Under the pieces are notes generated by a model. That model made no database searches. It was not told the DNA's origin and saw only the letters and a program-made list of their open reading frames with translations. A stretch of DNA of 42,469 bases from Gemmatimonadota bacterium. GTDB taxonomy: Bacteria > Gemmatimonadota > Gemmatimonadetes > Gemmatimonadales > GWC2-71-9. The stretch is from the NCBI GenBank assembly GCA_009692185.1, contig SHZT01000016.1:1-42469 (forward strand). The letters run 5' to 3'. Of this stretch, positions 1,027 through 38,195 are shown piece after piece (positions within the stretch are counted from its first letter, which is position 1; every line of letters begins with the position of its first letter). Position numbers and translations under genes: made by a program.

Positions 1027-2454
1027 CTACGCCTCCGCTTCCGGCGGCCAGCGCCGGTGCCAATCCGTATCCCGCTGAACGAACGTTCCCATGGCGAGCA
1101 ACGCCTCGTCGCCGTTTTCCGGTCCCACGAACTGAAATCCGATCGGCAGTCCCGCTTTGCTGAAACCGCAGGGGACGGAGAGCGCCGGCAGGCCCGCGAA
1201 GTTGGCGAGCGACGTGAGCCGGGGGAATTCCCTGAGAACCGGTTCCGTCCGCCCGCCAATCTGCACCTCGCCGGTGCCGATCACCGGCGGGAACGCCGGA
1301 AGAGTCGCGCCGACGAGTACCGACACCGACTCGAATGTCCGCTCGAGCGCAGCGATGGTCGCGAGCCGCTGTCGATGCGCCAGCACGAGGTCGCGCGCGG
1401 AGATGTCATAGGCTCGCTTCAAGCGCTCGAGGACCTTGGGCCCCAGGCCCGTCGAAGAGCCGACCGTCTGACCGTCTGACCGTCCGGCCGTTTCTGCTTT
1501 CTCGATGTACGGGTGGTAGTACGCGATCGCTTCGGCCAGCGTGATGAGCCCCGCCGCGTCCGGATTCCCGTCGAGTTCCGGGATCTTCACCTCGGTCACC
1601 CACGCATTGGCGCGGCGAAAGACCGCGATGGCACCCTCGACCGCGCGGGCGATTTCGGGGTCGAGATCGCGCATCAGGTATTCGCAGATGCCGATCTTGA
1701 GCCCGCGCATGCCCGTCCGTCCTGCCCGCCTCGCCCGTCCTGCCCGTCCAGAAATCACTCCAAACACCGCGGCGGCGTCTTCCGCACTGCGCGTCATCGG
1801 CCCGACGGAGTCCAGCGTCCAGGACAGGGGAATTACGTCTTCCGTGGAGATGCGTCCGCGCGTCGGCTTGAGACCGGTGATACCACAGGCCGCCGCCGGA
1901 ATCCGGACCGATCCGCGGGTATCGGTGCCGAGCGCCACCGGGACGAGGCCGGCGGCCACCGCAGCCCCGGAGCCGCCGCTCGACCCGCCCGGCGACCGGG
2001 CCAGGTCCCACGGATTGTGCACCGGATCAAAGTGCTCGTTCTCGCTCGTCACGCCGAGGGCGATTTCGTGGAGGTTGGTCCGGCCGACGATGATCGCGCC
2101 GGCCCGCTTGAGTGCGGCCACCACCGGGGCGTCGCGGTCACTCACCATCCCGTCGCCGAACACCCGCGATCCGGCCGTCGTCGGCGAGTCCTTGGTGAGT
2201 ATCAGGTCCTTGATCGCGACCGGGACGCCGAGGAGCGGTGCTCGCTGACCGCGCGCCACGCGGCGATCGGCGGCGCGCGCCTCGTCCAGGGCGGTGGTGC
2301 TGAGGGAAAGGAACGCATTGAGTGCGGGATTCAGCCGCTGGATGCGCGCGAGCGTGGTTTCCATCACCTCGGTCGGTGACACCTTCCGGCGCGCAATCAG
2401 CCTTGAAAGCTCGACCGCGCCCGCCTGCCAGATCTCTTCATTCATGCTGGGCAC
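1027..2454 (-). CDS. Amidase signature family protein (GatA-like amidase)
   Basis: A 475-residue member of the amidase signature family, which hydrolyses carboxamides with a Ser-cisSer-Lys triad. Expected residues are visible: Lys82 in the IKD motif, the cis-serine Ser159 in GGSSGGSG (157-163), and nucleophile Ser182 in DTRGSVRIPA. The sequence is closer to stand-alone amidases than to GatA proper, and no gatB or gatC is adjacent, so the substrate is unknown. The start chosen is GTG at 2454, which has GGAAGG at normal distance; an ATG nine bases downstream (2445) is the alternative. Two short-repeat tracts (1462-1493 and 1710-1749) lie within the gene and encode Gly/Arg/Ala/Thr-rich stretches not typical of the family. 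Confidence 0.9.
   Translation of the reverse strand: MPSMNEEIWQAGAVELSRLIARRKVSPTEVMETTLARIQRLNPALNAFLSLSTTALDEARAADRRVARGQRAPLLGVPVAIKDLILTKDSPTTAGSRVFGDGMVSDRDAPVVAALKRAGAIIVGRTNLHEIALGVTSENEHFDPVHNPWDLARSPGGSSGGSGAAVAAGLVPVALGTDTRGSVRIPAAACGITGLKPTRGRISTEDVIPLSWTLDSVGPMTRSAEDAAAVFGVISGRAGRARRAGRTGMRGLKIGICEYLMRDLDPEIARAVEGAIAVFRRANAWVTEVKIPELDGNPDAAGLITLAEAIAYYHPYIEKAETAGRSDGQTVGSSTGLGPKVLERLKRAYDISARDLVLAHRQRLATIAALERTFESVSVLVGATLPAFPPVIGTGEVQIGGRTEPVLREFPRLTSLANFAGLPALSVPCGFSKAGLPIGFQFVGPENGDEALLAMGTFVQRDTDWHRRWPPEAEA
1462..1493. repeat. Tandem 8-mer tract (4 units) inside the amidase gene
   Basis: Four consecutive 8-base units: two exact GACCGTCT, then GACCGTCC and GGCCGTTT. The tract lies in frame in the amidase gene, read on the minus strand. 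That strand (unit AGACGGTC) is free of stop codons in all frames, whereas the plus strand would give TGA. No inverted partner arm is seen nearby. Confidence 0.85.
1710..1749. repeat. Degenerate 9-mer tract inside the amidase gene
   Basis: Four copies of a 9-base unit TGCCCGTCC or close variants, at 1710-1718, 1723-1731, 1732-1740 and 1741-1749. A 4-base GTCC lies between the first and second copies. On the coding (minus) strand it encodes a Gly/Arg/Ala-rich stretch between two conserved parts of the amidase. It is the second such tract in this gene. Confidence 0.75.
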
Positions 2455-5659: not shown

Positions 5660-6793
5660 GTGCGTCACATCTACGTTCACGTCCCATTCTGCGCCCGGCG
5701 GTGCAGCTACTGCGACTTTGCTATCGCGGTGCGGAAGGTCGTCCCGGCGGACCGCTACGTCGCGGCGGTGACGCGGGAGCTCGAGACCCGCAAGCAAAAC
5801 GGCGAATGGGACTCCGAGCCGCTGGAGACCCTCTACTTCGGCGGCGGTACGCCGTCGTTGCTGCCCCCAGGTCATCTCGCCGACCTGATTGCGACGATCA
5901 CACGATCCGCTCATCCGCTCATCCGCCCATCCGCTGAGATCACCTTCGAAGCCAACCCCGACGACGTCACCCCCGAAGCGGCCCGTATCTGGGTGGCTGC
6001 CGGAGTGAATCGCGTCTCGCTCGGTTCGCAGTCATTCGATCCCGCCGTGCTCGCGTGGATGCATCGCACGCACGACGCCGAGGCGGTGCCTCGCGCCGTG
6101 CAGGTGCTCAGGGACGCGGGGATTCCGTCTCTGTCGCTGGACTTCATTTTCGGACTGCCAACGGAGCTGAACGCCTCGTTCGAGCGCGACCTGGAGAAAG
6201 CGGTTGCGCTCGGTCCGGATCACCTGTCCATCTACGGTCTTTCGGTGGAGGCGCGGACCCCGCTGGCCCGGTGGATTTCCCGCGGCGCCACGACCGCGCT
6301 TTCCGATGAGCGGTACGCGGACGAATTCCTGCTGGCACACGACCGGCTCACGGCGTTCGGGTACCGGCACTACGAGGTGTCCAACTACGCCCTGCCGGGC
6401 CGCGAAAGCCGGCACAACAGCGCGTACTGGCTGGAGCGGGACTACGCGGGGCTGGGCCCCGCGGCGCACTCGATGAGGCGGGGAGTGCGGAGCTGGAACT
6501 TCGCCCAGTGGACTGCCTACGAGCGGGCCGCCAAAGGAGGCAGTGATCCCACCGAGGCGCGGGAGAAGTTGAGCGAGCGCGAACGCCGGCTGGAACGGCT
6601 CTACCTGGGTCTCCGGACGGATCGAGGCGTGGCAAAGGCCCCGTGGTGGACTATCGAGCGCTCCCGCGAGGACCTCTGGACCCGGGAAGGGTGGCTCGAA
6701 ACGACGGGAGACCAGTACCGGCTGACCGCTCGGGGATGGTTGCGATTGGACGACTTGGTGGCGTCCTTGACCACCTCGGCCGATGGTGGCTAA
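5660..6793 (+). CDS. hemW: Radical SAM heme chaperone HemW (HemN-like)
   Basis: A 377-residue radical-SAM protein with the cluster motif C11-x3-C15-x2-C18 (CARRCSYC) preceded by YVHVPF, and the GGGTPS motif. It is HemW-like because the cysteine following the cluster motif in true coproporphyrinogen oxidases (CxxxCxxCxC) is replaced (CDF). HemW proteins bind heme and deliver it to respiratory enzymes; oxygen-independent coproporphyrinogen oxidase activity is not expected. The start is GTG at 5660, nine bases after dprA. A four-copy 8-mer repeat at 5905-5936 encodes residues about 83-93, just before the conserved AEITFEANPD. Confidence 0.92.
   Translation: MRHIYVHVPFCARRCSYCDFAIAVRKVVPADRYVAAVTRELETRKQNGEWDSEPLETLYFGGGTPSLLPPGHLADLIATITRSAHPLIRPSAEITFEANPDDVTPEAARIWVAAGVNRVSLGSQSFDPAVLAWMHRTHDAEAVPRAVQVLRDAGIPSLSLDFIFGLPTELNASFERDLEKAVALGPDHLSIYGLSVEARTPLARWISRGATTALSDERYADEFLLAHDRLTAFGYRHYEVSNYALPGRESRHNSAYWLERDYAGLGPAAHSMRRGVRSWNFAQWTAYERAAKGGSDPTEAREKLSERERRLERLYLGLRTDRGVAKAPWWTIERSREDLWTREGWLETTGDQYRLTARGWLRLDDLVASLTTSADGG
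5905..5936. repeat. Tandem 8-mer tract (4 units, ATCCGCNN) inside hemW
   Basis: Four consecutive 8-base units: ATCCGCTC twice, then ATCCGCCC and ATCCGCTG. The coding strand has no stop in any frame, while the opposite strand contains TGA. The same ATCCGCNN unit recurs in the MBL hydrolase gene at 23109-23132. No inverted arm is seen. Confidence 0.88.
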
Positions 6794-11846: not shown

Positions 11847-13648
11847 ATATCCCGGAAGAAACCATCGAGCAGGTCCGGGATGCAGCGGACATCGTGGCCC
11901 TGATTGGCGAGCAGGTGCCGCTCAAGCGCACCGGGTCCGACTACCGCGGCGCCTGCCCGTTCCACGGCGGCGCCAACCGGAACCTCGCGGTCATTCCGCG
12001 GAAGCAGATGTTCTACTGCTTCGTGTGCCACGAGGGCGGCGACGTCTTCACGTTTTACATGAAGAAGCTGGGGATGGACTACCCGACGGCCGTGCGGGAA
12101 ATCGCGCGGCGGGTGGGTATCGAGATTCCCGACCGTCCGACCGGCGGCCCCGACCGCCGCGAGCCGCTCTACTCGGCCGTGGGCGTCGCGGCGGAGTGGT
12201 ACGCGACCCGGCTTCGCGAAGGGGCCGATGCCGCCGATGCGCGCGCGTACCTCAAGGGCCGCGGCATCGAAATGGAGGCCGTGGGACCGCTGGGACTGGG
12301 ATTCGCGCCAAAGGGCAACGCGTTCCTCGATTCGATGCACGCGGTGGGGCTCACCGACCCGGTCATGTTCGAAGCCGGCCTCCTGACCAAGCGGGACGAC
12401 GGCTCGCTGCGCCCGCGGTTCTGGGGTCGCCTGCTGTTTCCCATTCACGATCTGCGCAGCCGCGTGGTCGGCTTCGGCGGCCGGGTCATCGGCGAGGGCG
12501 AGCCCAAGTATCTCAACTCGCCGGACTCCGAGGTGTTCCACAAGGGCAAACTGCTCTACAACCTGCACGACGCGAAGCACGCGATCCGGAAAGCCGAGCG
12601 CGCGATTCTGGTCGAGGGTTACTTCGACGTTCTCCGGTTGGTCGAGGTGGGGATCGAGCACGTCGTGGCCCCCCTCGGAACGGGGCTCACGCCCGACCAG
12701 GCCCAGCTGCTCAAGCGTTTCTCCGGCCAAGTCACCCTGCTCTACGACTCCGACGCTCCCGGGCTCCGCGCCACGTTTCGCACGGCGGACGAATTCCTCC
12801 GCGCGGGCCTGCGCGTGACGGTGGCCACGTTGCCGCCCGGGGAGGATCCCGACACGCTCGCGGCCAAGGGCGGGCGCAAGGCGGTCGAGGCCGTGCTCAA
12901 CGATGCAATCGACGTGTGCGAAAGAAAGTTGCAGCTGCTCGAACGAAAGGGCTGGCTGGCAGACCTCTCCGGGCGCCGGCGGGCCCTGGACCGGCTCCTG
13001 ACCACGCTGCGCGCGGCGAGCGACCCGGTGACCAAGGATCTCTACGTCTCGCGCGTGGCCGAAGCGCTCGGGGTCTCGCGGCAGTCCATCGAACGGGAGA
13101 TGGCGGGTGGGGGAGACGGGAGACCGGAGACGAGAGACGCGCACTACTCGTCTCCGGCCTCTCGTCCCTCGTCTCCCGCCCAGACGGCTCGTCCCTCGAG
13201 GGGGACCGGCGCCGAGCGGGATCTGCTCCGGGTGGCCGTGCACGAGCCGGCGTGGCGGAGCCGGATCGCCGAGCAGTTGCCCGACCCGGCGCTCCTGCGC
13301 CAGCCCGAGGGCGCGCTCCTCCTCCTGGTCGCGCACACGGCGGAAGGAACGTCCGCGGGCACCCTGATGACCGGCCTCGACGGCGATGGGCGAGTGCTCC
13401 TCGCCGCGATGCTCGAGGAGCCGTGGGGCGTGATGGACGTGGACGCGATCGTGGCCGGCGCCGTCAACAAGCTGAGCGGCCGGAAGCTGGAAGCGGAGCT
13501 GAAAGATCTGGAGCGGCGCCTGCCGCTCGCCCCCGAGAGTGAGAAGCCGGCTCTCACCAATCGGGTAGACGTGTTGAGCCGGCAAATCTCACAGTTGGAT
13601 CCTGGCAGGTGGAACGTCATCCGTAGAGGAGGTCGCGTTGGATCTTGA
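11843..13648 (+). CDS. dnaG: DNA primase DnaG
   Basis: A 601-residue bacterial primase that lays RNA primers for replication. The CHC2 zinc finger is near residues 37-62 (CPFH ... CFVC). The TOPRIM catalytic region follows, with ILVEGYFD near 254 and the acidic LLYDSDAPG segment near 300. The C-terminal part is the helicase-binding domain. A pair of inverted four-copy 7-mer arms (13111-13177) encodes an odd Gly/Arg/Ser/Pro-rich stretch at about residues 423-445, in the linker before the helicase-binding domain, where an insertion could be tolerated. The ATG overlaps the mutS2 stop (ATGA). Confidence 0.95.
   Translation: MNIPEETIEQVRDAADIVALIGEQVPLKRTGSDYRGACPFHGGANRNLAVIPRKQMFYCFVCHEGGDVFTFYMKKLGMDYPTAVREIARRVGIEIPDRPTGGPDRREPLYSAVGVAAEWYATRLREGADAADARAYLKGRGIEMEAVGPLGLGFAPKGNAFLDSMHAVGLTDPVMFEAGLLTKRDDGSLRPRFWGRLLFPIHDLRSRVVGFGGRVIGEGEPKYLNSPDSEVFHKGKLLYNLHDAKHAIRKAERAILVEGYFDVLRLVEVGIEHVVAPLGTGLTPDQAQLLKRFSGQVTLLYDSDAPGLRATFRTADEFLRAGLRVTVATLPPGEDPDTLAAKGGRKAVEAVLNDAIDVCERKLQLLERKGWLADLSGRRRALDRLLTTLRAASDPVTKDLYVSRVAEALGVSRQSIEREMAGGGDGRPETRDAHYSSPASRPSSPAQTARPSRGTGAERDLLRVAVHEPAWRSRIAEQLPDPALLRQPEGALLLLVAHTAEGTSAGTLMTGLDGDGRVLLAAMLEEPWGVMDVDAIVAGAVNKLSGRKLEAELKDLERRLPLAPESEKPALTNRVDVLSRQISQLDPGRWNVIRRGGRVGS
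13111..13177. repeat. Inverted pair of 4x7-mer arms inside dnaG
   Basis: The left arm, 13111-13138, is four 7-base units of GGGAGAC and one- or two-base variants. The right arm, 13150-13177, is four units of the complement type GTCTCCC and variants. The 11-base spacer lets the arms fold into an imperfect hairpin of about 28 bp. Neither strand has stops in the unit. The region encodes a low-complexity linker of the primase. Confidence 0.88.
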
Positions 13649-20328: not shown

Positions 20329-21168
20329 GTGGGCCGCCACCTCGGCCAGCACTTCCTGAATGACAAGGCGATCCTCGACCGGATCGTCGCCGCCCTCGAC
20401 CCCACACCCGACGACGTGGTCATCGAAATCGGGCCGGGGAAGGGGAGTCTTACCCGGCGCCTTGCGCCCCGAGTTCGCGCCGTGGTCGCTCTTGAGCTCG
20501 ATCGCCTGCTGGCGGCCGATTTGAGGGAAAAGGGAAAAGGGAAGAGGGAAGGGGGGATTCCCGACAACGTTCGCATCGTTGACGGTGATGCCCTCGAGCT
20601 CGACTGGGGTCGAGTGGTCTCGGAGCAGACTTTTCCCTTTTCCCTTTTCCCTTTTCCCGCCTTCAAGGTTGTCGGCAACATCCCGTACCAGATCACGTCT
20701 CCGCTCATCGAGAAGGCGCTCACGCCGCCGTTGCCGGCGGTGATCGTCATGCTGATGCAGAAGGAGGTCGCCGATCGGCTCGTGGCCCAGCCAGGGTCGC
20801 GCGAGTACAGCGGCCTGACCGTTGGCGTACGGTCGGTCGCCGCGGTCGAACGGCTGTTCATCGTGCGCGCCGGCGCGTTCAACCCGCCGCCGAAAGTTGA
20901 CTCCGCGGTCGTGCGATTCCGGCCCCTGGCCGACCCGCTGATCGCGGAAGCGGAGCGCGCGCCGTTCCGGGCGTTCGTGTCCGGGTTGTTCAGCCGTCGG
21001 CGGAAGCAGCTGGGACGGAGCCTGCGGGATGTCGGCGGCCTGTCAAAGGAGCAGGCGGCCGCTCTGCTGGCCCAGGCGGGTATCGCCCAATCGGCCCGGC
21101 CGGAGACGGTGGCGCCGGCCGGGCTCGTCGCGCTGTTTCGTTTGCAGCAGGCATCGCATACATTGTGA
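20329..21168 (+). CDS. rsmA: 16S rRNA adenine dimethyltransferase RsmA (KsgA)
   Basis: A 279-residue KsgA that dimethylates A1518/A1519 near the 3' end of 16S rRNA. It has the N-terminal LGQHFLND, SAM-binding EIGPGKG (33-39), NIPY catalytic motif (117-120), and C-terminal domain with FNPPPKVDSAVV and FSRRRKQLG. Two low-complexity stretches, residues about 66-77 (Lys/Gly/Arg/Glu) and 101-110 (Phe/Pro/Ser/Leu), are encoded by paired 7-mer repeat arms and are not normal parts of the fold. Both lie in loops of the Rossmann domain. The GTG start follows the phosphatase stop directly. The stop codon lies within the Rex operator of the next gene. Confidence 0.94.
   Translation: MGRHLGQHFLNDKAILDRIVAALDPTPDDVVIEIGPGKGSLTRRLAPRVRAVVALELDRLLAADLREKGKGKREGGIPDNVRIVDGDALELDWGRVVSEQTFPFSLFPFPAFKVVGNIPYQITSPLIEKALTPPLPAVIVMLMQKEVADRLVAQPGSREYSGLTVGVRSVAAVERLFIVRAGAFNPPPKVDSAVVRFRPLADPLIAEAERAPFRAFVSGLFSRRRKQLGRSLRDVGGLSKEQAAALLAQAGIAQSARPETVAPAGLVALFRLQQASHTL
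20523..20557. repeat. Purine-only 5x7-mer arm inside rsmA (left arm; G-quadruplex motif)
   Basis: 35 bases of uninterrupted purine on the coding strand, built from about five 7-base units of the AAGGGAA type. It contains five G runs of three or more spaced by 2-4 bases, fitting the canonical four-run G-quadruplex pattern on the plus strand. It pairs in inverted orientation with the pyrimidine arm at 20630-20658. Confidence 0.88.
20630..20658. repeat. Pyrimidine-only 4x7-mer arm inside rsmA (right arm)
   Basis: 29 bases of uninterrupted pyrimidine built from four CCCTTTT-type 7-mers. It has four CCC runs spaced exactly four bases apart, giving a G-quadruplex motif on the minus strand. It is complementary to the left arm 72 bases upstream. 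The sequence between the arms is conserved rsmA coding sequence. Confidence 0.88.
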
Positions 21169-21808: not shown

Positions 21809-22675
21809 GTGGTGACCACCAGCGCGGGGGTCATCCTCCGCCCCGACGGCACGTTGGTGGACCGGGCGCTCCGGCTGCTGGACGGGGCCCCCGCGGACAG
21901 CGGCCGCCTGACGCGTGACGTCCTGGGCATTCCGATCGCCAGTCCCGCCGTCGCTGAACGCCTGGTCACCGCGCTGCTCGGCAGTGACCCCCGCGTCGCG
22001 CGACTGGCCGATGGGCGCTGGGCCCTGGTCGGGTCGCCGGCCGGCTCACCCGGCGTCGCGGACTGCGTCTACGCCGTCGTGGATGTCGAAACCACCGGTA
22101 GCATGGCGGGGCGGGGAGACCGTATCACGGAGATTGCCGTGGTGCTTGTCCGGAACGGCGCATCGGAGACGGTCTACCAGCAGCTGGTGAACCCCGGCCG
22201 GCCCATTTCCCGCCAGGTCACGATGGTCACGGGCATCACGGACTCCATGGTTCGTGGCGCGCCGACGTTCTCGGAAATCGCCGACGACGTCATCGCGGCG
22301 CTCGCCGGGCGGGTCTTCGTCGCCCACAATGCGGGGTTCGACTGGCGCTTCGTTTCCGCCGAGCTCCGGCGCGCGCGGGGGTTCGCCCTCGAGGGGCCTC
22401 GCATCTGCACGGTCCGGCTCTCCCGGCGCCTCATCAAGGGGCTCAAGTCCCGGAGCCTGGACAACGTCGCGCAGTTTTTCGGCGTGGAAATAGAGGAACG
22501 GCACCGCGCGGGGGGCGATGCGCGGGCAACGGCCTGCGTATTTCTCCGGCTCCTGGCTCTCGCGGGCGAAGCCGGCGTGGCAACACTGACGGAACTCGCG
22601 GCCCTTGGCGAACGGCGAGGCAGGAAGCACCGCAAGAAGCGGCGGGCACACCCGACCTCGATGGACGAGGTATGA
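21809..22675 (+). CDS. DnaQ-like DEDDh 3'-5' exonuclease
   Basis: A 288-residue protein with an RNase T/DnaQ exonuclease domain at about 88-250. Exo I is VDVETTG, Exo II region HNAGFDW, and the DEDDh histidine with GGDARAT is near 230-237. The N-terminal 85 residues resemble a small extra domain of the kind found in PolC/DinG-like exonuclease proteins and are not further identified. The C-terminus is very basic (about 267-283), suggesting nucleic-acid contact. It could proofread for DNA polymerase III or act in repair. Start is GTG at 21809 or at 21812; the end overlaps the next gene (ATGA). Confidence 0.83.
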   Translation: MVTTSAGVILRPDGTLVDRALRLLDGAPADSGRLTRDVLGIPIASPAVAERLVTALLGSDPRVARLADGRWALVGSPAGSPGVADCVYAVVDVETTGSMAGRGDRITEIAVVLVRNGASETVYQQLVNPGRPISRQVTMVTGITDSMVRGAPTFSEIADDVIAALAGRVFVAHNAGFDWRFVSAELRRARGFALEGPRICTVRLSRRLIKGLKSRSLDNVAQFFGVEIEERHRAGGDARATACVFLRLLALAGEAGVATLTELAALGERRGRKHRKKRRAHPTSMDEV

Positions 22676-23595
22676 CGCTCGTCACGACGTTTCGGGTCGG
22701 CCGGCTCACGTGCCACACTCTCGAAGGCGGACGCCAGCACCTGGACGGCGGCGCCATGTTCGGCGTGGTACCCAAGCCGCTCTGGGAGCGGCGGATTCCC
22801 GCGGATGCGCGGAACCGCATTCCCCTCGCCCTGCGCTGCCTGCTTGTCGAGCATGATGCGGGACCGGTTCTCGTGGACACGGCCCTGGGCAATAAGGAAT
22901 CGGAGAAGTTCCGTGACATTTACGGCGTCGAGAACGCCGGAACGACCGGCCCCACCCAGTTGGAAGACGCGCTCGCCGAAGCCGGGTTCAAGAACACTGA
23001 CATCAGGTTTGTGATCAACACGCACCTGCACTTTGACCATGCGGGCGGGAACACGTGTGTCGAGGGGCAGGCGGCGGCAGGAGGGGGCAGCGAACCGCCC
23101 AACCGCTCATCCGCAAATCCGCCTATCCGCCTGTCCTTCCCCAACGCCCTGTACGTCGTCCAACAACGCGAGCTGGAGTACGCGCACCACACCAACGAGC
23201 GCACCGCTGCCAGCTACCTCCCTCACAACTTTGACCCGGTGACGGCGGCGGGTCGCTGGCGGCTCCTCGAGGGCGACGGCGAGGTTCTGCCTGGCATCGG
23301 GGTTATCCGCTCGCCGGGGCACGTGCCCCATCACCAGTCCATTCTGGTCCGGGACGGGGGTGAGACCGCCTGTTTTCTTGGCGATCTCGTCCCGACATCT
23401 GCCCACCTCCCGCTTCCCTGGATCATGGGGTACGACGTGGAGCCTTTGGTCAGTTTGGAGAGCAAGAGGGCGGTACTGACGCGGGCGGAGGCGGAGGCGT
23501 GGACGCTGGTGTTCGAACACGACCCGGAGCGGCCCCTTGGCCGGGTGGTGAAGGACGGTAAGTCGTTTGTATATCAGGCGCTTGACACTCGGTGA
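22672..23595 (+). CDS. MBL-fold metallo-hydrolase
   Basis: A 307-residue metallo-beta-lactamase-fold hydrolase with the metal motif THLHFDHAGG near residues 116-125 and downstream metal-binding His and Asp in GHVPHHQS and FLGDLVP. The pattern is like the AHL-lactonase/YflN-type subgroup, but the substrate is not determined. Residues about 129-154 form an unusual Gly/Pro/Ser-rich insertion partly encoded by an 8-mer repeat tract (23101-23132), placed just before the conserved FPNALYVVQ. Its last codons overlap the predicted infC promoter. Confidence 0.85.
   Translation: MTLVTTFRVGRLTCHTLEGGRQHLDGGAMFGVVPKPLWERRIPADARNRIPLALRCLLVEHDAGPVLVDTALGNKESEKFRDIYGVENAGTTGPTQLEDALAEAGFKNTDIRFVINTHLHFDHAGGNTCVEGQAAAGGGSEPPNRSSANPPIRLSFPNALYVVQQRELEYAHHTNERTAASYLPHNFDPVTAAGRWRLLEGDGEVLPGIGVIRSPGHVPHHQSILVRDGGETACFLGDLVPTSAHLPLPWIMGYDVEPLVSLESKRAVLTRAEAEAWTLVFEHDPERPLGRVVKDGKSFVYQALDTR
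23101..23132. repeat. Tandem 8-mer tract (4 units, ATCCGCNN) inside the MBL hydrolase gene
   Basis: Four 8-base units: AACCGCTC, ATCCGCAA and two of ATCCGCCT. This is the same ATCCGCNN unit as in hemW 17 kb away and again has four copies. The coding strand is stop-free while the other strand contains TAG and TGA. A G-rich stretch (23063-23091) lies just upstream but is not a clear complementary arm. Confidence 0.85.
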
Positions 23596-33643: not shown

Positions 33644-35545
33644 ATGAGCCTGCTCGCGTCCATCAAGAGTCCCGACGACATCAAGCGCATTCCGCGCGAC
33701 CAGTTGCCTAGGCTGGCGGACGAAGTCCGCCAGCGGCTGATCGATGTCGTGTCCCAGACCGGCGGCCACATCGGGGCCGGGCTGGGCGTGGTGGACCTCA
33801 CGGTCGCCATGCTGACCTCCTTCGACTCGCCGCGGGACAAGATCGTCTGGGACGTCGGGCACCAGGCCTACCCGTGGAAGATCCTCACCGGGCGGAACGA
33901 CGCGTTCCCCACCTTGCGGCAGGCCAAGGGCCTGTCTGGCTTCCTGCGCCGGGATGAAAGCCCGCACGACCACTTCGGCGCCGGCCACGCGGGAACGGCC
34001 CTCTCTGCGGCCGTCGGCATGGCGACGGCGCGGGACTTGAAGGGCGAATCGTTCCAGGTCGTGGCGGTGGTGGGCGATGGCGCCTTCACCTGCGGCTTGC
34101 CGTACGAGGCGATGAACAACGCCGGCCATTCGGACCGGGACATCATCCTCGTCCTCAATGACAACGGCATGTCCATCGCGCCGAACGTCGGGGCCATCAA
34201 CAAGTACCTGGGCTCGATCATTGCCAGTCCGGCGACCAACCGCCTGCGCGAGAAGGTGAAGGGCCTGATCGAAAAGGCGTCGCACGTGGTGGGCGGCAAG
34301 CCCATGATCGAGTTCGCCCAGAAACTCGAAGAGAGCGTCAAGAATCTCTGGTCGCCCGGCATGCTGTTCGAGGAGCTGGGCTTCCGCTATTTCGGGCCGA
34401 TCGAGGGCCACAACATGGAGGCCCTGCTCAAGGCCTTCGAGCTGGTCAAGGGCCTCAAGGGCCCGCGGGTCGTGCATGTCATTACCGAGAAGGGAAAGGG
34501 GTTCCCGTTCCCGGAGCCCGACGTCGAGAAGTTCCACGCCCGCAACCCGTACAACCCCGTCACTGGGGAACTGAAGCCTGCCACGAGTGGGCCGCCGTCC
34601 TGGACCAAGGTCTTCGGCACCGCGATCACCGAGCTGGCGGCCGAACATCCCGAGCTGGTGGCCATCACCGCGGCCATGCCGTCCGGCACCGGGACCGACA
34701 TTTTCAAGAAGAAATGGCCGGATCGTTTCTTCGACGTGGGAATTGCCGAGGGCCACGCGACAACGTTCGCGGCCGGCCTGGCCACGCAGGGCATTCGGCC
34801 CGTGGTCGCCATCTACTCGACGTTCCTCCAGCGGGCGTACGACAACGTCATTCACGACGTCGCGATCCAGAACCTGCCGGTCATCTTCGGCCTGGACCGC
34901 GCGGGCATGGTGGGCGCGGATGGCCAGACCCACATGGGCCTCTACGATATTGCCTACATGCTGGCGGTCCCGAACATGACCGTCACCCAGCCGATGGATG
35001 CCGCGGAAATGGTCGGTCTCCTGCGTTGCGCATTGGCCCACAAGGCCGGCCCGTTCAGCATTCGCTACCCGCGCGACAACGCACCCGCCGCCTCGCCGCC
35101 CGCCGCCGAAGTCGCCCCGGTTCCCTACGGAACGTGGGAAATGCTCCGGTCGGGAAAGGAATGTGCCGTGCTGGCGGTCGGGGTCATGTGCGGGCCGGCC
35201 ATGGAGGCTGCCGCGCTTCTCAAGCCCGACGGCTTCGACGTGAGCGTGGTCAACTGCCGGTTCATGAAGCCCCTCGACCGCGCCATGCTGGAAACGCTGG
35301 TGCGCAATCACCGGGTCCTCGTCACCGTGGAAGACGGTGCCGTGGTCAACGGATTCGGGGCTTACCTCTCGACCATCGTCTCCGAGATCGCGCCCGACGT
35401 GCGGGTCGTGGTGATGGGCGCCGAAGATCGCACGTATGAACACGCCTCCCGCCCGGCCCAGCTGGCCGAGGTTGGTCTGACGGGGCGGGGCATTGCCGAC
35501 CGGGTCCGGGTGGCCGCGGCCCAGGAGAGCACGGTCGGCGCATGA
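33644..35545 (+). CDS. dxs: 1-deoxy-D-xylulose-5-phosphate synthase
   Basis: A 633-residue thiamine-diphosphate enzyme catalysing the first step of the MEP pathway (pyruvate plus glyceraldehyde 3-phosphate). The ThDP motif begins at GDGAFTCG (about 145) and ends with LNDNGMSI. The pyrimidine domain carries DVGIAEGHATTFAAGLA and GADGQTHMGLYD, followed by a transketolase C domain. The usual Gln after the catalytic Glu (AEQH) is Gly here (AEGH), a mild variation. ATG overlap with nadK. Confidence 0.95.
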   Translation: MSLLASIKSPDDIKRIPRDQLPRLADEVRQRLIDVVSQTGGHIGAGLGVVDLTVAMLTSFDSPRDKIVWDVGHQAYPWKILTGRNDAFPTLRQAKGLSGFLRRDESPHDHFGAGHAGTALSAAVGMATARDLKGESFQVVAVVGDGAFTCGLPYEAMNNAGHSDRDIILVLNDNGMSIAPNVGAINKYLGSIIASPATNRLREKVKGLIEKASHVVGGKPMIEFAQKLEESVKNLWSPGMLFEELGFRYFGPIEGHNMEALLKAFELVKGLKGPRVVHVITEKGKGFPFPEPDVEKFHARNPYNPVTGELKPATSGPPSWTKVFGTAITELAAEHPELVAITAAMPSGTGTDIFKKKWPDRFFDVGIAEGHATTFAAGLATQGIRPVVAIYSTFLQRAYDNVIHDVAIQNLPVIFGLDRAGMVGADGQTHMGLYDIAYMLAVPNMTVTQPMDAAEMVGLLRCALAHKAGPFSIRYPRDNAPAASPPAAEVAPVPYGTWEMLRSGKECAVLAVGVMCGPAMEAAALLKPDGFDVSVVNCRFMKPLDRAMLETLVRNHRVLVTVEDGAVVNGFGAYLSTIVSEIAPDVRVVVMGAEDRTYEHASRPAQLAEVGLTGRGIADRVRVAAAQESTVGA

Positions 35546-36405
35546 ACGTGGGGGTGGTGGGAAACCCCAGGTACCGCAACCTTCGCGGCCTCCTGGCCCG
35601 CCTCGTCGCCCTCGCCCCAAAGTTCGGGTTCGAGCTGTGCGGTGAGGACAAGATCGCGGAACTGTGGCCCGCCCCGGTTCCATTGCTGCACGCCAAGCCG
35701 CTGGATCTCCTCCTCACGTTTGGCGGCGACGGCACCCTCCTCCGCGGCGCACGCATCACCATTCCGCAGGACGTTCCCATACTCGGCGTCAACATCGGGC
35801 GGGTGGGCTTCCTGGCGCGCGCCACCCCGCAGACCCTGGAAGCGGCGCTCGAAGCCATTGCGAACAAGCAATACAACACCGAGCTGCGGCGTATCCTGGA
35901 GGCGGTGATCGAGGGGGCCGACGGGATTCGGCGGCCGGCCGCATCGGCGGTGAACGACGTGGTCGTGCACAAGACGGGGGTCGCCCGCGTAATCCACCTG
36001 CGGGTCAACATCGGCGATGAGGCCGTGGGACAGTACAGCGCCGATGGCATCGTGGTGGCCACCCAGACCGGCTCGACCGCCTACTCGCTGTCGGCGGGTG
36101 GGCCGGTCGTCGTGCCCGGGGTGGACGCCATGGTCATCACGGCCATTTGCCCCCACACGCTCGCCGTACGCCCTATCGTCGCGCCGGGATCCGCCACCAT
36201 CACCATCGAGGTCGTCCCGCCGTGGACCGACCAGGTCCTGGTGTCCTATGACGGCCAGACCGGCACGGCCCTCCAGGCCCATGACCGGGTGATCGTCAGC
36301 CAGGGCTCGGCCAGCGTTCGTTTGATCAAGCTCGGAACAGAAGGGTTCTTTGCCCGCCTCGCCCGCAAGCTACACTGGGGCGATCTGAGCGACCGCCAGC
36401 GGTAG
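35542..36405 (+). CDS. nadK: NAD kinase
   Basis: A 287-residue NadK that phosphorylates NAD to NADP. Motifs are TFGGDGTLLRGAR (about 65-77), GVNIGRVGFLA, NDVVVHK, and the glycine-rich DGIVVATQTGSTAYSLSAGGP. The start is ATG overlapping the dxs stop (ATGA). It is followed by the 116-base gap with repeat arms and then recN, a common nadK-recN pairing. Confidence 0.95.
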   Translation: MNVGVVGNPRYRNLRGLLARLVALAPKFGFELCGEDKIAELWPAPVPLLHAKPLDLLLTFGGDGTLLRGARITIPQDVPILGVNIGRVGFLARATPQTLEAALEAIANKQYNTELRRILEAVIEGADGIRRPAASAVNDVVVHKTGVARVIHLRVNIGDEAVGQYSADGIVVATQTGSTAYSLSAGGPVVVPGVDAMVITAICPHTLAVRPIVAPGSATITIEVVPPWTDQVLVSYDGQTGTALQAHDRVIVSQGSASVRLIKLGTEGFFARLARKLHWGDLSDRQR

Positions 36406-36408
36406 GAT

Positions 36409-36432
36409 GAAGGGAAAGGGAAAAGGGAAAAG
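36409..36432. repeat. Purine-only 7-mer arm in the nadK-recN gap (left arm)
   Basis: 24 bases of uninterrupted purine just after the nadK stop, built from three 7-mers of the GGGAAAA type. This is the same unit as in rsmA 16 kb away. It is complementary to the pyrimidine arm 49 bases downstream. It has three closely spaced GGG runs, one short of a full G-quadruplex motif. Confidence 0.88.
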
Positions 36433-36481
36433 TGGAACTCATGACGATCCCTTCCGGCCCGTGCCCGAGCTGATGCGCCTA

Positions 36482-36511
36482 CCTTTTCCCTTTTCCCATT
36501 TCCCATTTCCC
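36482..36511. repeat. 4x7-mer pyrimidine arm directly before recN (right arm)
   Basis: Four 7-base units, two CCTTTTC and two CCATTTC, ending ten bases before the recN ATG. CCC runs are spaced four bases apart, so the minus strand has a four-run G-quadruplex motif. Together with the left arm it would make an 18-bp or longer mRNA stem occupying the whole gap, followed by a T-rich stretch. Confidence 0.88.
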
Positions 36512-36521
36512 GTCTTTTCTG

Positions 36522-38195
36522 ATGCTGACTGAACTCAGAGTCAAAGACCTGGCTGTCATCGCGGACGTGACGATCCCGCTCCGGGCCGGGCTCAACGTGC
36601 TCACCGGCGAAACCGGGGCGGGGAAGTCCATGCTGGTGGATGCCCTCGCCCTCCTCCTCGGCGAGCGCGCCAGTGGAGACCTGGTGCGCCCCGGTGCCGA
36701 CCGCGCGGTGGTCGAGGCGGTGTTCGACATCGGCAAGGATGCGGACGTCGCCCGCACGGCGGACGAGCTGGGCGTGGACTTGGGAGACGAAGGCCTCGTG
36801 GTCCGGCGGGAAATCAGCGCCGGCGGCCGGAACCGCGCGTGGGCGAACGGCAGCCCGACCACCGTCGCGGCACTGGGGAAGCTCGGAAGCTTCCTGGTCG
36901 ATCTCCATGGCCAGCACGAGGCGCAGTCACTCCTGAAGCCAGCCGCCCAGCGGGACATCCTCGATGCTTTTGGCGGCGCCGAAGGAGAACGGCGGCGCGT
37001 GCGGGTCGGGTTCGACACGGCTGAAGAGTTGCGTCAGCGGGAAGCCGAGCTCAGCCGCCGCCGGGACGACATCCGGAAGCGCGCGGACTACTTGCGCCAT
37101 GTCCTCAAGGAGATCACCGGCGCCCAGATCAGGCCGGGAGAGGACGAATCCCTCGAGTCAGAGGCGCGCCGCCTGGGTCATGCTGAAGAGCTGACCCGCC
37201 TGGCGGCCCGCCTGGCAGACATTCTCGAGGGAGACGACGAGCGGGGCGCAGCGCCATCCCTGGGTGCCGCGGACAAGGCGCTTACGGCGCTGGAGCGAAT
37301 CGACCCCGATACCGGGAAATGGCGGGCGTTGCTGGACGCAGCCATCGCCCAGGTAGACGAGCTCGCCCGGCTGGCCAGGGACTACGGTGCCGGCGTCGAG
37401 CTGGACCCCGGCCGTTTGGGCGAGGTCGAGCGGCGCCGGGACCTGCTCTATCGGCTCCGGCAGAAGTACGGCGCCACCGTGGACCAGATCCTCGAGACCG
37501 GGAACGAAGCCAAGAAGGAACTGGACACGCTGGACACGGCCGACGGCGACCTCGCCGCCCTGTCGGAGCGGCGCGCTGCGGTCGAGCGTGAACTGGAAGA
37601 AGCGTGTAGCGTGCTCACGAAGAAACGCCGGGCGGCCGCCACCCGCCTCTCGCGGGCTGTGGAGCACTTGCTGCCCGGTCTGGGTCTCCCGGGAGGCAAG
37701 TTCTCCGTAGAGATCAAGGCGCTCGAGTCCCCCAGCGGGAGCGGGGCGGACCAGGTCGCGTTCCTGGTCCAGCTGAACGTTGGCCTCGAGCCTCGGCCTC
37801 TCGCCCAGGTGGCGAGCGGCGGAGAGCTGTCCCGGCTCATGCTCGCGCTCAAGGTGGTGCTGGCCGCGCACGACGCGGTGCCCACGCTGGTCTTCGACGA
37901 AGTGGATTCGGGCGTCGGCGCCGAGGTGGGGATCCAGGTGGCCGAGGCGCTGGCGAAGGTGGGAGAGTCGCGCCAGGTGCTGGTGATCACGCACCTCGCG
38001 CAAATCGCGGCCCGCGCGCGGCACCACGTCAAGGTGACCAAGGCGCCGAAGCAGGGCGTCGCGACGGCCGATGTGTCGGTGCTGGACGCGGGGGAGCGTA
38101 TCGAAGAGGTGGCGCGGTTGCTGGGTGGCGTGAAGGATCCCTCGCTACGCCGGCACGCAGAGGAGTTGCTTTCGGGAAAGGCGTCTAGGGAGTAG
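36522..38195 (+). CDS. recN: DNA repair protein RecN
   Basis: A 557-residue SMC-like ATPase active in double-strand break repair. Walker A is GETGAGKSML (about 30-39), followed by DLHGQHEAQSLL. A coiled-coil middle (about 165-370) precedes the signature VASGGELSRLMLALK and Walker B TLVFDEVDSGVGAEVG. The ATG at 36522 gives the standard N-terminus, but it has no purine-rich ribosome-binding site: the bases upstream are the pyrimidine repeat arm. The 3' end overlaps the convergent gene by 11 bases. Confidence 0.95.
   Translation: MLTELRVKDLAVIADVTIPLRAGLNVLTGETGAGKSMLVDALALLLGERASGDLVRPGADRAVVEAVFDIGKDADVARTADELGVDLGDEGLVVRREISAGGRNRAWANGSPTTVAALGKLGSFLVDLHGQHEAQSLLKPAAQRDILDAFGGAEGERRRVRVGFDTAEELRQREAELSRRRDDIRKRADYLRHVLKEITGAQIRPGEDESLESEARRLGHAEELTRLAARLADILEGDDERGAAPSLGAADKALTALERIDPDTGKWRALLDAAIAQVDELARLARDYGAGVELDPGRLGEVERRRDLLYRLRQKYGATVDQILETGNEAKKELDTLDTADGDLAALSERRAAVERELEEACSVLTKKRRAAATRLSRAVEHLLPGLGLPGGKFSVEIKALESPSGSGADQVAFLVQLNVGLEPRPLAQVASGGELSRLMLALKVVLAAHDAVPTLVFDEVDSGVGAEVGIQVAEALAKVGESRQVLVITHLAQIAARARHHVKVTKAPKQGVATADVSVLDAGERIEEVARLLGGVKDPSLRRHAEELLSGKASRE

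What the first reader, a model, noticed from the sequence alone, without database searches (positions are those of the whole stretch)
20523..20658. Paired purine/pyrimidine repeat arms with G-quadruplex motifs embedded in the rsmA coding sequence
A 35-base purine run and a 29-base pyrimidine run, 72 bases apart, are mutually complementary and both inside rsmA. Each has at least four G3/C3 runs with 2-4-base loops, meeting the standard G-quadruplex pattern, one on each strand. They encode residues 66-77 and 101-110, which look like loop insertions on either side of a conserved segment of the methyltransferase core. An mRNA hairpin closing over the catalytic-domain codons, or quadruplexes on both strands, could affect transcription or translation of an essential-for-fidelity rRNA enzyme.
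Basis: partly seen in the sequence, partly recalled or inferred. Interest (0 to 1): 0.65.

Follow-up and report, generated by a model that had tools for sequence, protein, structure and literature searches.

The report
Genome-wide heptamer hairpin arms inside rsmA
Two short, mutually complementary repeat stretches inside the gene for a ribosome-maturation enzyme belong to a family of paired seven-letter repeats scattered through this soil bacterium's genome; in related genera the same two spots carry different but again complementary repeats, which suggests that something keeps overwriting them with each genome's own repeat, even inside an important gene.

Summary
The arms are one member of a family of heptamer-arm inverted pairs (G-rich arm first, usually about four units) found across this Gemmatimonadota genome, with a second GGGAAAA copy at 36410-36511. 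In at least 10 genera of the same family, the same two RsmA loops carry strongly complementary arms built from other units (GTGAAGA, GGGGAGC, GTGCAAC, GCGGAAC, TGCGGAN and others). In 9 of 10 genomes tested, the rsmA unit is the commonest of the four units counted genome-wide. Both loops are occupied or neither is, consistent with one gain on the RsmA tree.

Quadruplexes are not conserved: among 15 arm-bearing genomes only this one can form them on both arms. An mRNA function is not supported: sense-strand G.U wobbles are not favoured, and an arm pairs about as well with arms of other loci. Best reading: a Xanthomonas-type heptamer, REPIN-like repeat, installed once in two tolerant surface loops around a conserved core and later overwritten by each genome's prevailing unit. 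The copying mechanism is unknown, and the genome's RAYT-like transposase is flanked by other palindromes.

The parts
20329..21168 (+). rsmA (ksgA), 279 aa, start GTG
   Evidence: Pfam PF00398 and NCBIfam TIGR00755; AlphaFold2 model mean pLDDT 90.8
20523..20557 (+). first (G-rich) arm: GA(GGGAAAA)2 GGGAAGA GGGAA GGGGGGA; encodes loop residues ~66-76 (REKGKGKREGG)
   Evidence: loop between helix 59-68 and strand 81-85 in the model; insertion absent from arm-less relatives
20558..20629 (+). host segment between the arms: conserved RsmA core (NVRIVDGDALELDW) plus a short inserted stretch (VVSEQ) before arm 2
   Evidence: alignment of 30 relatives; D87, A88, L89, D92, W93 invariant in alignment A1
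20630..20658 (+). second (C-rich) arm: (CTTTTCC)4C; encodes loop residues ~101-110 (TFPFSLFPFP)
   Evidence: loop between helix 93-101 and strand 112-117 in the model
36410..36511 (+). second GGGAAAA inverted pair of the window, in the gap between an NAD kinase gene (35542-36405) and recN (36522-38195)
   Evidence: a few nt after one gene and 10-19 nt before the next
13115..13166 (+). related inverted pair (GGGAGAC-type unit, loop 12) in the inter-domain linker of dnaG; other genera carry hairpins with other units at this same site

Best explanation
The two arms are one copy of a dispersed, REPIN-like repeat family whose ends are tandem heptamers, usually about four units, always arranged G-rich arm first and C-rich arm second with a variable stretch between. 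SHOWN: such pairs are scattered through this genome and its relatives; each genome has its own prevailing heptamer(s); arms sit in the same two RsmA loops in at least 10 genera and use a prevailing unit of their own genome; the segment between the rsmA arms is conserved host coding sequence. INFERRED: arms were installed once, in the ancestor of a Gemmatimonadota clade, at two surface loops that tolerate in-frame insertions; later, as each lineage's repeat family changed its unit, the rsmA arms were overwritten in place by copies of the prevailing arm (ectopic copying or template switching at stalled, hairpin-forming replication intermediates), which keeps them complementary without any need for selection on rsmA itself. 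The stable mRNA/DNA hairpin is then a tolerated consequence. The agent that moves or copies the arms is not identified.
For: Genome-wide family: 35 exact and 123 near (<=2 mismatches) 17-mers in the own genome. Of 80 inverted pairs in 1.15 Mb of family DNA, 76 are G-first and 3 C-first. rsmA loops complementary beyond all 300 shuffles in 12 of the 30 rsmA loci read (own included), 11 of them strong, plus two named MAGs, Gemmatimonadetes AG36 and AG37. Cross-matrix: own loop1 x own loop2 mean score 40 against 16 for loops of different genomes, 0 of 20,000 permutations as high. The rsmA unit is the commonest of four counted units in 9 of 10 genomes, and second by 27 to 30 in the tenth. Tree: 17 of 19 members of one clade have inserts at both loops, none in its sister group. 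In G001 the ordered array GTGAAGA-GTGTAGA-GTGAAGA-GGGAAGA occurs in both rsmA arms (32/32 complementary) and exactly at other loci with unrelated flanks. Within a genome, own partner is little better than other loci's arms (42.8 against 39.3 in G000; rsmA alone). Same-site hairpins with different units also in the dnaG linker and at a MutS2-like linker.
Against: No copying intermediate or agent was seen. The clear Y1 transposase of the own genome is flanked by a different palindrome and no heptamer arms lie near it. How arms come to flank a conserved coding segment, instead of being inserted as one hairpin, is unexplained. G001's perfect 32-nt pair could also reflect selection for pairing. The single-gain reading rests on a clade with 92/79 support under midpoint rooting.
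Confidence: 0.66

Rival explanations
1. The pair is kept because the rsmA mRNA needs the long-range hairpin (for example to pace translation of the catalytic domain or protect the message).
For: Very stable fold, z -6.7 and -8.9 in two genomes; complementarity kept through complete sequence change in at least 10 genera.
Against: Sense-strand G.U mismatches are not favoured over A.C (5 against 12); pairing is explained by family identity; identical architecture occurs in intergenic DNA; weak, decayed or absent in 6 of 19 clade members.
Confidence: 0.14
2. Quadruplexes on both strands regulate rsmA.
For: Both arms match the G3+ pattern here; GGGAATC heptamers of Xanthomonas form quadruplexes in vitro (PMC4692102).
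Against: Only this genome of 15 has the pattern on both arms, and one other has it on one arm.
Confidence: 0.03
3. The arms are REP/REPIN elements mobilised by the Y1 (RAYT-type) transposase of these genomes.
For: REPIN-like anatomy: inverted doublet, conserved ends, variable spacer, weak inner-border motif; Y1_Tnp found in most arm-bearing genomes and in the own genome.
Against: The own genome's clear Y1_Tnp is flanked by a GGGCTGATAGCCCG palindrome and has no heptamer arm within the 15 kb read; several arm-bearing genomes lack a hit (G017, G019, G031; two of them incomplete) and several arm-less ones have one; a doublet moving as a unit would not leave host coding sequence between its arms.
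Confidence: 0.13
4. Protein-level selection for the basic and Phe/Pro-rich loops.
For: Inserts are always in frame and lie in loops.
Against: Encoded residues differ completely between genera while nucleotide complementarity stays.
Confidence: 0.02
5. Independent slippage-born microsatellites that happen to be complementary.
For: Heptamer arrays are slippage-prone and common.
Against: Fixed G-first polarity 76 to 3, recurrence at the same two sites, both-or-neither occupancy.
Confidence: 0.02

Closest known systems
GGGAATC heptamer repeats of Xanthomonas and GGGGA(C/T)T of Nostoc (Rehm et al. 2015, PMC4692102)
   Same: Heptamer unit, preference for four units, dispersed over the chromosome, 70-75 'convergent' inverted pairs per Xanthomonas genome, G-strand after stop codons and C-strand before starts.
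   Different: Mostly intergenic (89-93%) there, and quadruplex formation was proposed as the common property. Here many units cannot form quadruplexes, units change between genera at fixed sites, and one pair embraces conserved coding sequence.
REPINs / BIMEs (Bertels and Rainey 2011, PMC3116915)
   Same: Inverted doublets of a short repeat with an intervening spacer, able to form hairpins in ssDNA or mRNA, many copies per genome.
   Different: Arms are tandem heptamers rather than palindromic REPs; not associated here with the genome's transposase; rsmA copy has a host spacer.
Nostoc trnL intron P6b stem (Kaasalainen et al. 2015, PMC4476775)
   Same: Stem built from complementary seven-nucleotide repeats; one repeat class replaced wholesale by another, several times, at a fixed site.
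   Different: Intron of a tRNA gene with two repeat classes; here a protein-coding gene, many classes, and agreement with the genome-wide family.
Repeats inserted in genes: Rickettsia RPEs and intragenic GTAG/CGTC REPs (2013 survey, PMC3733652)
   Same: Short palindromic repeats in frame inside coding sequences, often of replication and repair genes; different REPs at about the same site of recB in two Xanthomonas species.
   Different: Those are single insertions; here two separate arms in two loops.
Template-switch homogenisation of inverted-repeat arms in coding DNA (PMC8604942; RNA hairpins, PMC8794818)
   Same: A known way to keep two arms complementary without selection.
   Different: Acts within one locus; it does not by itself explain the match to the genome-wide unit.

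Membership tests
Xanthomonas-type dispersed heptamer inverted pairs | tandem 7-nt unit, about four copies | tested here: met
   period 7 best in most arms; 28-nt arrays commonest
Xanthomonas-type dispersed heptamer inverted pairs | convergent (G-arm first) pairing in close proximity | tested here: met
   76 of 80 G-first, 3 C-first; loops 5-88 nt with a few to 189
Xanthomonas-type dispersed heptamer inverted pairs | dispersed in many copies over the genome | tested here: met
Xanthomonas-type dispersed heptamer inverted pairs | mostly intergenic | tested here: inconclusive
   at least 26 of 80 pairs clearly intergenic or at gene edges; a simple ORF caller over-calls coding context at gene starts
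Xanthomonas-type dispersed heptamer inverted pairs | quadruplex-capable unit | tested here: not met
   met in this window, but not in 13 of 15 rsmA orthologues with arms; so not a property of the feature as a whole
REPIN (RAYT-mobilised REP doublet) | inverted doublet with conserved ends and variable spacer | tested here: met
REPIN (RAYT-mobilised REP doublet) | linked to a cognate RAYT flanked by the same repeat | tested here: not met
   own Y1_Tnp flanked by other palindromes; no heptamer array in the 15 kb read around it
REPIN (RAYT-mobilised REP doublet) | GTAG/CGTC tag at one end | tested here: not met
   inner border GTA in 24 of 51 arms of the own genome, no fixed tetranucleotide; other families differ
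RsmA/KsgA | equivalog HMM over cut-off and conserved NxPY motif | tested here: met
   TIGR00755 233.7 against 171; NIPY present
G-quadruplex regulatory element | G3+ pattern kept in orthologues | tested here: not met
Structured mRNA element under selection | compensatory or wobble changes beyond what family identity gives | tested here: not met
   5 G.U against 12 A.C mismatches; own partner no better than other loci in most genomes

The most novel reading that the evidence does not exclude
These genomes host an active, transposase-independent process that copies about 30-nt hairpin arms between loci and overwrites them in place, including inside essential coding genes, so that both arms of a split pair around a conserved protein segment are exchanged in concert whenever the genome's heptamer family turns over.
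Probability: 0.35. Interest if true: 0.78.

Novelty: new variant of a known kind. Interest (0 to 1): 0.58.

Why it matters
Heptamer inverted pairs have been known in Xanthomonas and Nostoc for a decade without an origin or a function. Here the same two sites of one widely conserved gene record repeated unit exchanges over a deep clade, with a conserved protein segment between them to anchor the alignment. That makes the open question (how do such repeats spread, and why do both arms change together?) directly testable, and it warns that long-range complementarity conserved across genera need not mean a selected RNA structure.

Tried and rejected
Quadruplex as the conserved property: rejected. 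mRNA hairpin selection: sense wobble test negative, within-genome partner test negative. Protein-level conservation of the loops: rejected. RAYT/Y1 transposase as agent: searched in 61 genomes and read in the own genome, not supported. A universal unit rule GNGNANN: 16 of 24 distinct units fit against 9.7 expected, post hoc and weak, not used. Interior motif next to TGCGGAN arms: weak (about 0.3-0.6 bits at a few positions); three rsmA second arms score in its top 1%, suggestive only. Two region calls failed for being one base too long and were repeated. My first dnaG linker regex missed most genomes and was replaced by an alignment.

Full report
OBSERVATION. The coordinates hold to the base. 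The purine run is 20523-20557, the pyrimidine run 20630-20658, 72 nt between them; the best ungapped inverted repeat is 26 nt with one mismatch. The 17-mer GGGAAAAGGGAAAAGGG matches the window 11 times at <=3 mismatches against 0.04 expected. The host ORF 20329-21168 is RsmA/KsgA.

NOT A LOCAL CURIOSITY. The own genome (2.63 Mb, 30 contigs) has 35 exact and 123 near matches to the 17-mer, many falling into pairs in which a G-rich arm on the + strand is followed by its complement within 200 nt. One more pair lies in the window, between an NAD kinase gene and recN (36410-36511). A seed-and-extend search over 1.15 Mb of this bacterial family's DNA found 80 pairs with period 7, 8 or 9; 76 are G-first and 3 C-first. 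Because the arrangement is its own reverse complement, this polarity is the same on both strands and cannot come from gene orientation. The stretches read were partly chosen because they contain arms, so the count is not a density.

WHAT RELATIVES SHOW. RsmA was found in 56 of 61 genomes. Aligned, many genera of the same family have insertions at exactly the same two loops, with unrelated residues (REKGKGKREGG/TFPFSLFPFP here; RVKREE/LPSSLYTLHA; ECGMRSAECG/PHSAFRTPH; VQRATYNVQR/HVARCTLHA), while the segment between them (NVxIVxGDALxLDW) is conserved. At DNA level the two loops are reverse complements of each other in each such genome, with a different heptamer: GGGAAAA (own), GTGAAGA (G001), GGGGAGC (G006), GGAGGAC-like (G017), GTGCAAC (G031), GCGGAAC (G011), TGCGGAA/T/G (G016, G020, G026, G032), GTGTCGG (G028). 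Eleven are strong (no shuffle of 300 reaches them and score at least 31); two more (G036, G025) are weaker, and two (G021, G019) have the inserts but decayed complementarity. Two named records, Gemmatimonadetes bacterium AG36 and AG37, carry TGCGGAR arms at the same place and place the group in Gemmatimonadota. Loops of one genome do not pair with loops of another unless they share the unit: mean score 40 on the diagonal, 16 off it, none of 20,000 permutations as high.

HISTORY. In a tree of RsmA built without the two loops, 17 of 19 members of one clade have inserts at both loops and two have neither; no member of the sister group has them (support 92/79, midpoint root). No genome was seen with an array at one loop only. 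The simplest account is one gain of both arms, two losses, and repeated replacement of the unit.

THE UNIT FOLLOWS THE GENOME. Four unit patterns were counted in 61 genomes. In 9 of 10 genomes with a classifiable rsmA unit, that unit is the commonest of the four (for example G000 GGGAAAA 101 against 0, 0 and 1; G026 TGCGGAN 89; G021 GGGGAGC 120; G006 GGGGAGC 47; G001 GTG-type 65); in G031 it is second, 27 to 30. In G001 the ordered array GTGAAGA-GTGTAGA-GTGAAGA-GGGAAGA is shared exactly between both rsmA arms and other loci whose flanks and spacers are unrelated. What is shared is therefore the arm, about 30 nt, with a defined inner border (GTA follows 24 of 51 arms in the own genome; a weak longer motif in the TGCGGAN family).

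IS PAIRING SELECTED? The RNA would fold very stably (-83.8 kcal/mol, z -6.7; -89.1, z -8.9 in G001). But three tests speak against selection on the rsmA message. Mismatches in the rsmA stems are 5 sense G.U against 12 A.C, where selection on mRNA would favour G.U. Within a genome, an arm pairs with its own partner hardly better than with the C-arm of another locus (42.8 against 39.3 in G000, although pairs were chosen for complementarity), and for rsmA itself arms of other loci pair as well or better in five of six genomes; the sixth, G001, could not be judged from the few other pairs sampled then. And the same architecture occurs in intergenic DNA. So the complementarity of the rsmA arms largely follows from both arms belonging to one polarised, homogenised family.

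QUADRUPLEXES. Of 15 arm-bearing RsmA genes only the window's has the G3+ pattern on both arms; G006 has it on one. It is a property of the unit GGGAAAA, not of the feature.

WHY RSMA TOLERATES IT. In the AlphaFold2 model (mean pLDDT 90.8) the arms encode the connections between helix 59-68 and strand 81-85 and between helix 93-101 and strand 112-117, the two least confident internal stretches. Helix-to-strand connections in this fold lie on the side away from the cofactor (established knowledge of Rossmann-like methyltransferases, not measured here). The best solved RsmA matches have gaps at both places. The same tolerance is seen in the flexible linker of DnaG, where the window (13115-13166) and at least five relatives carry hairpins with different units at one site, and in a MutS2-like linker (identity of that gene inferred from sequence, not scanned). 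What is special in rsmA is that the arms flank a conserved coding segment; in the other intragenic cases read here the spacer is short or unconserved.

MECHANISM. Shown: family, polarity, sites, unit agreement. Inferred: copying of arms between loci and homogenisation of the two arms, most plausibly by template switching when replication meets hairpins; within-locus arm homogenisation in coding DNA is documented in yeast (PMC8604942) and template switching is reported to create and maintain RNA hairpins (PMC8794818). A RAYT-type transposase was considered because the anatomy is REPIN-like (PMC3116915); Y1_Tnp genes are common in the family, but the own genome's clear copy is flanked by a different palindrome and no heptamer arm lies in the 15 kb read around it.

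AGAINST WHAT IS KNOWN. The closest described repeats are the GGGAATC heptamers of Xanthomonas with 70-75 convergent inverted pairs and a preference for four units (PMC4692102). The closest described behaviour is the wholesale exchange of seven-nucleotide repeat classes in the P6b stem of the Nostoc trnL intron (PMC4476775). Intragenic REPs, some at about the same site in related species, are known (PMC3733652). I found no paper describing heptamer pairs in Gemmatimonadota or unit exchange at a fixed coding site, in the open library searched. I file it as a new variant of a known kind.

Noticed in passing
window 13115-13166: Inverted pair with GGGAGAC-type arms in the inter-domain linker of dnaG; at least five relatives (G016, G020, G011, G026, AG36) carry hairpins with other units at the same linker, and G042 of another family has an 8-mer version.
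   Followed up: partly
window 36410-36511: Second GGGAAAA inverted pair, filling the gap between an NAD kinase gene and recN.
   Followed up: partly
window 5905-5935: Octamer array ATCCGCTC x3.9 in frame inside a 377-aa radical-SAM/HemW-like ORF (5660-6793, encodes RSAHPLIRPSAE); a single C-rich arm without a clear partner. Gene identity is inferred from sequence.
   Followed up: no
window 23062-23136: Degenerate G-rich then C-rich octamer arrays inside a YtnP-like metallo-hydrolase gene (22672-23595), looking like a decayed hairpin insertion.
   Followed up: no
window 1460-1491: Octamer array CCGACCGT x4, another short unit without a found partner.
   Followed up: no
L275 7320-7853 (G000:C17:25320-25853): Y1 transposase gene flanked by repeated palindromes GCGGGCTGATAGCCCGCGCTCGGC: a classical RAYT-REP-like arrangement distinct from the heptamer family.
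   Followed up: partly
L173 7138-7201 (G000:C27:190137-190200): The inner flank of this intergenic arm shares GTCTGCTCCGA with the inner flank of the second rsmA arm, beyond the heptamer array; may mark a copy event between the loci.
   Followed up: no
L102 14365-14487, L128 14846-14985, L089 190-267: Inverted pairs with 7-nt periodic arms (AGTTGAA, ATTGAAA, TAGTAAT types) in Alloalcanivorax, a Nitrospirae MAG and a gammaproteobacterial MAG: the architecture is not confined to Gemmatimonadota.
   Followed up: no
G027 and G042 genomes: 203 and 71 matches to the GGGGAGC array pattern respectively, yet no arms in their rsmA: expansion of a family does not by itself place arms in rsmA.
   Followed up: partly
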